Positions 54,572 through 56,890 of a stretch of DNA of 64,000 nt are shown in pieces; the stretch's first letter is position 1, and every line of letters starts with the position of its first letter. Below the pieces are notes generated by a model. The model worked only from the letters and a program-made list of their open reading frames with translations. It was not told the origin of the DNA and did not search any database. Origin of the DNA: Sandaracinus amylolyticus (GTDB lineage Bacteria > Myxococcota_A > Polyangia > Polyangiales > Sandaracinaceae); NCBI RefSeq assembly GCF_021631985.1, contig NZ_CP070225.1, positions 9,176,001 through 9,240,000 on the forward strand, given 5' to 3'. The translations under genes were made by a program, and so were the position numbers.

Positions 54572-55414
54572 TCACCGGTCGCAGGGCACGACGATCTCGT
54601 CCAGGTACGCACGCGCATCGGCGCCCTCGGGCCCGACGATCGTCACGACGAGATGGAACGCGCGGTGCGACGACGGAGCCTCGAACGCGAGCACGCGCGC
54701 CTCGACCCGTCCTCCGTGCGCCAGCGCCGCGCCGAATCGCGCCGAGCCACAGCGCGCTCCTTCGCGCCGCGCGTCCTGCGCCTCGATCTCGATCCCCTGC
54801 GCGCGCAGCGGTCCCGCCGCCGCGCGAGCGCGCGCGTCGAGCGCCTCCAGCGACGCGTCCTCGGCGCGCGTCAGATCGAGCGTCACCGTGATCGCGCGAT
54901 CGCTCGACTCGAACGCCCAGAGCCGGTGCGCATCGCGCCATCCCGGCCCGGCGCGCTCGCTCGTCTCGCGCACGATCTCCTCTGCGGGCGAGAGCGCGAC
55001 GCTCGGCTGGGGCAGGCGAAAGCCCAGCGTGCGATGCGCGACCCACGCGCGCCCCTCGAGCTCGACCGCCTCGAGCCCCGCGCGATCCGACTCGAGCAAC
55101 GCGAGCGCAGCGCGCCCCGGCGCGCGCGCTGCGACCACCGCGAGCCACGCGGCGATCCCCACGGACGCGCCCGACGCGAGCAGGATCGCCGCCCGTCGAT
55201 GTCCCGTGCTGCCCAGCAGGTATGCGCCACCCGCTGCGAACGCCGCGATGCCTGCGAGCAGACGGCTCGCGCTCGTCGCGCTCTCCGCCGCGCGACCGAC
55301 GAGCCCGTCGGCGATCGTCCCGCCGAGCGCGCCCACGATCACGCCCGCGGTCGCGCCGATGGTGAGCGCGAGCATCATGCGGCGGAGATCGACCACGCGG
55401 CGAGCGGGGATCAT
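54572..55414 (-). CDS. Membrane protein of unknown function
   Basis: A protein of about 280 aa. The ATG at 55414 is chosen because earlier in-frame codons fall within the tRNA gene. Three hydrophobic helices occupy about 10-110 (LTIGATAGVIVGALGG, LLAGIAAFAAGGAYLLG, GIAAWLAVVAARA). The remaining 170 residues form a soluble domain with strands (ITVTLDLTRAEDA, LVVTIVGPEGADARAYLDEIVVPCD). No catalytic motif is seen and the family is unknown. It lies just downstream of tRNA-Gln on the same strand and may be read through from it. Confidence 0.7.
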   Translation of the reverse strand: MIPARRVVDLRRMMLALTIGATAGVIVGALGGTIADGLVGRAAESATSASRLLAGIAAFAAGGAYLLGSTGHRRAAILLASGASVGIAAWLAVVAARAPGRAALALLESDRAGLEAVELEGRAWVAHRTLGFRLPQPSVALSPAEEIVRETSERAGPGWRDAHRLWAFESSDRAITVTLDLTRAEDASLEALDARARAAAGPLRAQGIEIEAQDARREGARCGSARFGAALAHGGRVEARVLAFEAPSSHRAFHLVVTIVGPEGADARAYLDEIVVPCDR

Positions 55415-55431
55415 GCGATGGGCGCGAGCGA

Positions 55432-55502
55432 TTCCGGCGGCTGGATTCGAACCAGCATTCACGGATCCAAAGTCCGCTGTCCTGCCCTTAGACGACGCCG
55501 GA
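55432..55502 (-). tRNA. tRNA-Gln (anticodon TTG)
   Basis: The minus strand folds into a full cloverleaf of 71 nt plus CCA (not encoded). The acceptor stem is TCCGGCG/CGCCGGA, the anticodon arm is CGGAC-TTTGGAT-CCG with anticodon TTG, and the T-arm is CTGGTTCGAATCCAG. The discriminator is A. The 5' half overlaps the 3' end of pabB. Confidence 0.95.
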
Positions 55503-56844
55503 ACGGATCGTCGGTCGTTGTAGCACGAGCCCCGACGGCCTCCTCCTCCAATGCACGAACCGCGTCGAGGAGCACGCGCGCCTTGAGCTCGGTCTCCGCG
55601 ACCTCGCGTTCCGGGACGCTCGCCTCGACCAGCCCGCCGCCCGCGAAGTACTCGACCTCGCCGCGCGCGACCGTCGCAGTGCGGATCGCGACCGCGAGCG
55701 AGAGCCCGCCGGCGCGATCGACGTGGCCGATCGCGCCGCAGTACGCGCCTCGCGGGAAGCGCTCGAGCGCCTCGATGATCTCGATCGCGCGCAGCTTCGG
55801 CGTTCCGCTGATGCTGCCCGGCGGGAACGTCGCTTCGAGGATCGCGCGCAGGTCGACGTCGTCGCGCGTCGTCGCGCGCACCGTCGACACCAGGTGCGAG
55901 AGCCCGGCGTAGGGCTCGACCTCCATCACGCGCTCGACGCGCACGGTGCCGACCTCGGCGACGCGCCCGAGATCGTTGCGCATCAGATCGACGATCATCG
56001 CGTGCTCGGCGCGCTCCTTCGCGTCGGTGCGCAGCGCCGCCGCCTCGCCGCGATCATCACCGGCGCGCGCGATCGTGCCCTTGATCGGGCGTGTCTCGAT
56101 CGCGCGGGTGCGCGCGTCCCAGCGCAGGAAGCGCTCCATCGTGCGCGCGAGCACCGCGCGATCGCGGCCGAGCTCGAGGAACGCACCGAAGGGCACCGGG
56201 CTCGCGGCGCGCATCGCGAGGAAGAGCGCGATCGCGTCGCCCTCGATCGTCGCGCTCCACCGGCGCGCGAGGTTCACCTGGTAGATCTCGCCCGCCGCGA
56301 CGTGCTCGAGCGCGCGCTCGATCGCCGCGCGATGCACCTCGGCGGGCTCGCCGATCGGACGCGACACCCGCGCGCGCGGCGCGGACGCGCGCTCGTCGAT
56401 GCGCGCTGCGAGCCGATCGATCGCGGCCTCGTCGTCGCCCACGATCCACGCGCGCCTGCGCTGCGCGTCGAGCGCGACCAGCGCGTCGTAGCGCGCGAGC
56501 CACGCGATCGGCGCATCGCCCGAGCGCGCCAGCCGCGGCGCGCGACGCAGCCCCGAGCCCGAGCTCCAGCACGCGTCGTACGCGACGAGCCCGATCCACG
56601 CCGGCACGTCCGCCGGATCGAGCTCGCACGCTCCGGAGCCGCACGCCGCGAGCCCGCGCATCACGTCGTAGGGCGCAGGATCGCCCCACCGGACCGAGCG
56701 GACCTCGACCGGCTCGCACCCCACGAACGACCAGCGTCCCTGCGGCGCGCTCCCGTCGCCGTCGAGCCACGCGAGCCCGCGTCCGCGCCATCCCGCCGCG
56801 AGCGCCGCCACGTCGATGCTGCCGTCGATCTCGCGCGCGCGCAC
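55459..56844 (-). CDS. pabB: Aminodeoxychorismate synthase component I
   Basis: A 461-aa chorismate-binding enzyme that makes 4-amino-4-deoxychorismate for folate. The catalytic block includes YQVNLARRW near 205, ETRPIKGTIA (Lys in the PIKGT motif marks PabB rather than TrpE), MIVDLMRNDLGRVAEVGTV, YAGLSHLVSTVRA, FPPGSISGTPKLRA and YCGAIGHVDRAGG. The GTG at 56844 has AAGGAG 6 nt upstream; GTG 56868 is less good. The normal domain ends near ARVLLDAVRALEEEAV, but no stop occurs until 55459, so a tail of about 25 residues is read into the tRNA-Gln gene. The glutaminase partner PabA is not in the window; folE elsewhere in the window feeds the same pathway. Confidence 0.92.
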   Translation of the reverse strand: MRAREIDGSIDVAALAAGWRGRGLAWLDGDGSAPQGRWSFVGCEPVEVRSVRWGDPAPYDVMRGLAACGSGACELDPADVPAWIGLVAYDACWSSGSGLRRAPRLARSGDAPIAWLARYDALVALDAQRRRAWIVGDDEAAIDRLAARIDERASAPRARVSRPIGEPAEVHRAAIERALEHVAAGEIYQVNLARRWSATIEGDAIALFLAMRAASPVPFGAFLELGRDRAVLARTMERFLRWDARTRAIETRPIKGTIARAGDDRGEAAALRTDAKERAEHAMIVDLMRNDLGRVAEVGTVRVERVMEVEPYAGLSHLVSTVRATTRDDVDLRAILEATFPPGSISGTPKLRAIEIIEALERFPRGAYCGAIGHVDRAGGLSLAVAIRTATVARGEVEYFAGGGLVEASVPEREVAETELKARVLLDAVRALEEEAVGARATTTDDPFRRRLRAGQRTLDP

Positions 56845-56890
56845 GGCGGGCTCCTTGACTCGGGGCACTCACGAAGTAAAGGCGCGCACG

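What the first reader, a model, noticed from the sequence alone, without database searches (positions are those of the whole stretch)
55432..55502. pabB reading frame ends inside tRNA-Gln
The pabB stop codon lies 44 bp into the tRNA gene on the same strand, so the last part of the mRNA is the 5' half of tRNA-Gln. RNase P cleavage would remove the pabB stop codon, linking tRNA processing with pabB mRNA translation and leaving non-stop messages.
Basis: seen in the sequence. Interest (0 to 1): 0.55.

Follow-up and report, generated by a model that had tools for sequence, protein, structure and literature searches.

The report
pabB ends inside a tRNA gene
In two closely related soil myxobacteria a vitamin-pathway gene appears to have lost its own stop signal and now ends inside the neighbouring tRNA gene; the overlap is real, but it looks more like an accident of gene order than a conserved switch.

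Summary
The pabB-like frame (55459-56868, minus) ends at a TGA (55461-55459) that is nt 42-44 of a well-formed, single-copy tRNA-Gln(UUG) at 55502-55432 on the same strand. A second species (G001) has the same frame, tRNA and stop, so a sequencing error is very unlikely.

The overlap is not conserved further. tRNA-Gln(UUG) lies within 500 nt after the pabB domain in 15 of 64 assessable same-order genomes, 14 on the pabB strand. In 12 of those 14, pabB stops 9-147 nt before the tRNA; only the window genome and G001 overlap. The enzyme domain ends about 15 codons before the tRNA, and 15 codons of this 72% GC window are open by chance 78-87% of the time. A lost stop would usually run into the tRNA.

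If transcription reads through, RNase P cutting would leave stop-less pabB mRNA. That follows from the layout, but nothing here shows regulation. The published precedent is selB/selC (Mukai 2021), with stops at tRNA nt 46-48 and the same hypothesis. Verdict: a new, probably incidental example of a known kind.

The parts
55459..56868 (-). pabB-like gene (chorismate-binding enzyme), GTG start, TGA stop at 55461-55459
   Evidence: Pfam PF00425 residues 177-429; PabB NCBIfam profiles best but below cut-off
55432..55502 (-). tRNA-Gln(UUG), 71 nt without encoded CCA; the only UUG-anticodon tRNA-Gln among 56 tRNA matches in the genome
55459..55502 (-). overlap: the last 44 nt of the pabB frame are the first 44 nt of the tRNA
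55503..55548 (-). tail of the pabB frame after residue 440, outside the matched domain (46 nt; GC1/2/3 0.75/0.60/0.67, less coding-like than the rest, but short)
55517..55522 (-). possible tRNA promoter -10 element TACAAC, inside the pabB frame, without a recognisable -35
   Evidence: consensus scan negative
54572..55414 (-). next gene on the same strand, likely ATG 17 nt after the tRNA; no Pfam or NCBIfam match
   Evidence: GC1/2/3 0.79/0.59/0.88; present in G001 (89% identity) and in part in G002 (49%)

Best explanation
An incidental, lineage-specific 3' overlap. pabB and tRNA-Gln(UUG) are old close neighbours on one strand. In the ancestor of the two nearest Sandaracinus species pabB lost its own stop just after the enzyme domain, and the frame ran about 15 codons to the tRNA and on to the TGA at tRNA nt 42-44 (overlap shown; direction of change inferred from the relatives). 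The extra tail is tolerated. The tRNA is made from a weak promoter inside the pabB 3' end, by processing of pabB read-through RNA, or both (not resolved). On read-through RNA, RNase P is expected to cut at the tRNA 5' end, leaving a stop-less pabB 5' fragment whose ribosomes tmRNA can rescue (inferred). I read this as a side effect the cell bears, not a selected switch.
For: 2 of 14 genomes with pabB and tRNA-Gln(UUG) on one strand overlap; 12 stop 9-147 nt before the tRNA, including G002 of the same genus, 28 nt before. The domain and both PabB profiles end by residue 433. A 15-codon stretch is open in 87% of random window draws and 78% in a composition model. Read in its three frames the tRNA first stops at nt 13, at nt 42, or not at all. 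Three of three antisense ORFs that I chose to scan at other tRNAs of this genome have Pfam domains and also run into or through tRNAs, so overlap with tRNAs is not special to pabB.
Against: None of the last 34 codons differs between G000 and G001, 19 of them before the tRNA (chance about 0.013 for the 19 at the rate of codons 1-440; noticed first and then tested), so something constrains that DNA. The tRNA is single-copy, so interference with it should matter. No clear separate promoter was found, which makes read-through more likely. The rest of the order was not examined at this locus (68 of 183 genomes were).
Confidence: 0.75

Rival explanations
1. Selected switch: one transcript gives either full-length PabB or mature tRNA-Gln(UUG), because RNase P cutting removes the pabB stop and ribosomes crossing the 3' end unfold the tRNA, so pabB output is tied to tRNA processing.
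For: Layout; single-copy tRNA; tmRNA present; no change in the last 34 codons between two species; weak or absent separate promoter; same idea proposed for selB/selC.
Against: Only 2 of 14 same-strand neighbours overlap; PabB has no known relation to tRNA-Gln; the tail is non-domain; the run-in is expected from base composition.
Confidence: 0.1
2. Overlap at the DNA level only: pabB transcripts end before or rarely enter the tRNA, and the tRNA has its own promoter inside pabB, so RNase P never matters for pabB. This concerns transcription and is compatible with the incidental reading, so the confidences do not add to one.
For: -10-like TACAAC 14 nt upstream, a score reached by 1.3% of 4000 random leaders and 11 of 1306 pabB windows; the same hexamer serves another tRNA leader of this genome, at 7232183. 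4 of 14 relatives' leaders score as promoter-like at P below 0.03 (G046, G023, G034, G042).
Against: No -35; the joint score is reached by 57% of random leaders and 761 of 1306 pabB windows; 10 of 14 leaders including G000, G001 and G002 do not stand out; no promoter or terminator by consensus scan.
Confidence: 0.3
3. Sequencing error or frameshift hides an earlier stop.
For: None found.
Against: G001 has the same tail and stop, and the 1410-nt frame aligns to it without a gap. The other two frames have no stop in the 98 nt before the tRNA either.
Confidence: 0.02

Closest known systems
Partial selB/selC overlap in Dyella and Luteibacter (Mukai 2021, PMC8124441; parts 1 and 2 of 3 of the text read)
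   Same: A protein gene's stop lies in the middle of a same-strand tRNA (there nt 46-48, here nt 42-44); closely related strains stop before the tRNA; the proposed consequence is a non-stop mRNA after tRNA processing.
   Different: There the protein (SelB) binds the tRNA (tRNA-Sec); here a chorismate-binding enzyme and tRNA-Gln(UUG), with no known relation.
selC fully nested in selB in Alphaproteobacteria (same paper)
   Same: Same-strand coding/tRNA overlap; the next frame lies close behind the tRNA.
   Different: There the whole tRNA is inside the frame and the trait is described as widely kept; here only 44 nt overlap, in two species of those examined.
tRNA-Lys inside cox1 in the Armadillidium mitochondrion (Doublet 2015, seen only as cited in PMC8124441)
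   Same: Same-strand tRNA within coding sequence, with competing RNA fates.
   Different: Compact organelle genome and full nesting; here an 11 Mb bacterial genome and partial overlap.

Membership tests
Bacterial protein gene partly overlapping a same-strand tRNA (partial selB/selC type) | Stop codon of the protein gene lies inside the tRNA on the same strand | tested here: met
   TGA at tRNA nt 42-44
Bacterial protein gene partly overlapping a same-strand tRNA (partial selB/selC type) | Close relatives with the same gene order stop before the tRNA | tested here: met
   G002 of the same genus, and 11 further genomes of the order
Bacterial protein gene partly overlapping a same-strand tRNA (partial selB/selC type) | tRNA processing yields non-stop mRNA of the protein gene | not testable with these tools
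   needs RNA and protein data; also only a hypothesis in PMC8124441
selB/selC system | Protein is SelB and tRNA is tRNA-Sec | tested here: not met
   Chorismate_bind enzyme and tRNA-Gln(UUG)
PabB (aminodeoxychorismate synthase component I) | Chorismate_bind domain | tested here: met
   PF00425, 259.9 bits, cut-off 27
PabB (aminodeoxychorismate synthase component I) | Passes a curated PabB profile cut-off | tested here: not met
   TIGR01824 298 of 408.55 bits; TIGR00553 296.6 of 328.4 bits; both rank above the TrpE profiles shown
tRNA-Gln gene | Full cloverleaf and Gln anticodon | tested here: met
   Rfam RF00005 61.2 bits, whole model; anticodon TTG

The most novel reading that the evidence does not exclude
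In these two Sandaracinus species the only tRNA-Gln(UUG) and the PabB-like enzyme are alternative products of one RNA: cutting out the tRNA yields stop-less, tmRNA-tagged PabB, so folate-pathway output is set by tRNA processing. After the proposed selB/selC case this would be a second bacterial tRNA-in-message switch, with a protein that has no known business with the tRNA.
Probability: 0.07. Interest if true: 0.65.

Novelty: new member of a known kind. Interest (0 to 1): 0.27.

Why it matters
It suggests how a protein gene can come to end inside a tRNA simply by losing a stop beside it, and it is a natural test case for what happens when tRNA cutting removes a stop codon. The relatives that stop just before the same tRNA are built-in controls. 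They would help judge whether such overlaps, including the published selB/selC ones, need a functional explanation at all.

Tried and rejected
Sequencing error or frameshift: rejected, because a second species has the same frame and stop.

A promoter of the tRNA shown by sequence: tried with a two-block model learnt from 48 other tRNA leaders of this genome (7 of the 55 other tRNAs were left out because another tRNA ends within 60 nt upstream). The -10 stands out, the -35 does not, so it is left open.

The overlap as a habit of this genome: same-strand ORFs end inside 13 of 56 tRNAs, but the other 12 have no Pfam hit. By their codon-position GC several look like shadows of genes on the other strand (my reading).

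A start of the downstream gene inside the tRNA (GTG 55462, overlapping the pabB TGA): possible, but judged less likely than ATG 55414. Profiles did not help.

Wider search: the first 51 nt of the tRNA with up to 3 mismatches in 289 genomes of the class hit 4 genomes, all already in hand (G000, G001, G002, G030). This tests only near-identical tRNAs.

Literature: six searches returned 232, 156, 84, 10, 2 and 5 papers, of which 20, 15, 30, 10, 2 and 5 were listed. Among the listed ones PMC8124441 is the only comparable bacterial case I recognised. Unlisted papers and subscription journals were not seen. PMC3873611 was looked at in one passage and only mentions filtering genes that overlap tRNAs.

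Rows dropped before counts: of 70 loci, two are second copies (G044b, G072b), and four genomes lack 500 nt downstream (G006, G014, G071, G011). The 68 genomes are the best-scoring ones down to about E 1e-61 plus four lower-scoring ones (G019, G021, G038, G051); weaker hits may not be pabB orthologues. G146 has an odd frame that stays open for 281 codons after the domain and no tRNA nearby; it was kept in the 64.

Full report
What is there. On the minus strand a 469-aa pabB-like frame (55459-56868) ends with TGA at 55461-55459. The same strand carries tRNA-Gln(UUG) at 55502-55432: Rfam tRNA, 61.2 bits, whole model, and ARAGORN tRNA-Gln with anticodon TTG. The stop is tRNA nt 42-44, the last base of the anticodon stem plus two bases of the variable loop (my reading of the alignment). 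The tRNA folds at -28.1 kcal/mol into a cloverleaf-like form (z -1.74 against shuffles). It is the only UUG-anticodon tRNA-Gln among the 56 tRNA matches of the genome; two CUG-anticodon genes exist. The next gene on the same strand probably starts at ATG 55414, 17 nt after the tRNA. It is found in G001 at 89% and, over residues 75-278, in G002 at 49%; 15 loci from 14 genomes were searched.

Which organism. The window's chromosome has 10,754,065 bases. That fits Sandaracinus defensii MSr10575, stated to have 10.754 Mb (PMC9306752, passages). G001 has 10,327,335 bases and fits S. amylolyticus DSM 53668, stated to have 10.33 Mb and 72% G+C (PMC5010890, passages). These are matches of size, not of accession.

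Is the protein real, and where does its domain end? Codons 1-440 have GC1/2/3 of 0.77/0.55/0.93; the 46-nt tail before the tRNA has 0.75/0.60/0.67, less coding-like but short. Pfam Chorismate_bind matches residues 177-429. The two best PabB profiles both end, at their last position, at residue 433, but both score below their curated cut-offs. The matched part is thus complete well before the tRNA.

Relatives. The protein was sought in 183 genomes of the order; 179 matched. I examined 70 loci from 68 genomes, mostly the best-scoring ones. Four of the 68 lack 500 nt of downstream sequence, leaving 64. In 15 of 64 a tRNA-Gln(UUG) starts within 500 nt after the matched domain: 14 on the pabB strand and one, G010, on the opposite strand. 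Of the 14, 12 have the pabB stop 9-147 nt before the tRNA (ARAGORN starts), and two, G000 and G001, overlap. G002, of the same genus, stops 28 nt before. So the gene order is old, the stop position drifts, and the overlap was seen only in the two nearest species. In 49 of 64 genomes no tRNA-Gln(UUG) lies there at all.

Same overlap in G001. The tRNA and the 57 nt before it are identical in both species. The 1410-nt frame aligns without gaps; 90 of 470 codons differ, 58 synonymously and 32 not. None of the last 34 differs; for the 19 of these that lie before the tRNA the chance is about 0.013 at the rate of codons 1-440. This hints at constraint on the DNA but cannot tell a promoter from a coding tail, and I tested it after seeing it.

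Chance. The window is 72.2% GC. Fifteen codons are open in 87% of random draws from the window and 78% in a composition model. In its three frames the tRNA first stops at nt 13, at nt 42, or not at all. After loss of a stop, ending inside or beyond the tRNA is therefore the expected result. Same-strand ORFs of about 100 aa or more end inside 13 of 56 tRNAs; 12 of these have no Pfam hit. Three antisense ORFs that I chose to scan do have Pfam domains, two integrases and a VIT-family protein, and run into or through tRNAs; the other antisense ORFs were not scanned.

Promoter. A model from 48 other tRNA leaders (consensus TTGACA and TAGATT) finds TACAAC 14 nt before the tRNA as a good -10, reached by 1.3% of 4000 random leaders and 11 of 1306 pabB windows. 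There is no -35, and the joint score is reached by 57% of random leaders, 761 of 1306 pabB windows, and 42 of the 48 training leaders. Of the 14 same-strand leaders in relatives, 4 look promoter-like at P below 0.03 (G046, G023, G034, G042) and 10 do not. A consensus scan found no promoter and no terminator at 55200-55800. A weak promoter, read-through, or both remain possible.

Mechanism. If transcription passes from pabB into the tRNA, RNase P (general knowledge) would cut before nt 1 at 55502 and part the stop from the message. Ribosomes on the 5' fragment would stall, and a tmRNA gene is present for rescue (141.1 bits). Ribosomes that reach the stop would in turn cover the 5' part of the tRNA. 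These steps are inferred; I had no RNA data. I hold the incidental reading at 0.75 and a selected switch at 0.1; the promoter question cuts across both.

Comparison. Mukai 2021 (PMC8124441; parts 1 and 2 of 3 read) describes selC nested in selB in Alphaproteobacteria and, in Dyella and Luteibacter, a selB stop at tRNA nt 46-48 with close relatives stopping before the tRNA. It proposes that processing makes non-stop selB mRNA. The case here has the same layout and the same patchy presence, but the protein has no known relation to the tRNA. By layout it is a new member of that kind of overlap; it is not a selB/selC system. In the listed results of six searches I recognised no other bacterial case and no report on Sandaracinus.

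Noticed in passing
L045:162-1568 (+), own genome; tRNA at G000:C1:2114356-2114429 (-): A phage-integrase gene (PF00589) ends inside the antisense strand of a tRNA gene, as an element integrated at a tRNA might leave it.
   Followed up: no
L097:1403-2800 (-), own genome; tRNA at G000:C1:7285591-7285663 (+): A second phage-integrase gene (PF00589) ends inside the antisense strand of another tRNA gene.
   Followed up: no
L103:629-1723 (+), own genome; tRNA at G000:C1:1790830-1790903 (-): An ORF with a VIT-family domain (PF01988) runs antisense through a whole tRNA gene.
   Followed up: no
L076 (G046) and L083 (G023), 3' end of pabB: The pabB stop codon TAG is also the first half of a promoter-like -10 hexamer TAGGTT before tRNA-Gln, so stop and tRNA promoter may share bases.
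   Followed up: partly
L088 (G010), downstream of pabB: tRNA-Gln(UUG) sits beside pabB but on the opposite strand, 8 nt after the stop, the only inverted case among 15.
   Followed up: partly
window 54572-55414 (-): The gene after the tRNA has no Pfam or NCBIfam match; it is shared with G001 and in part with G002.
   Followed up: partly
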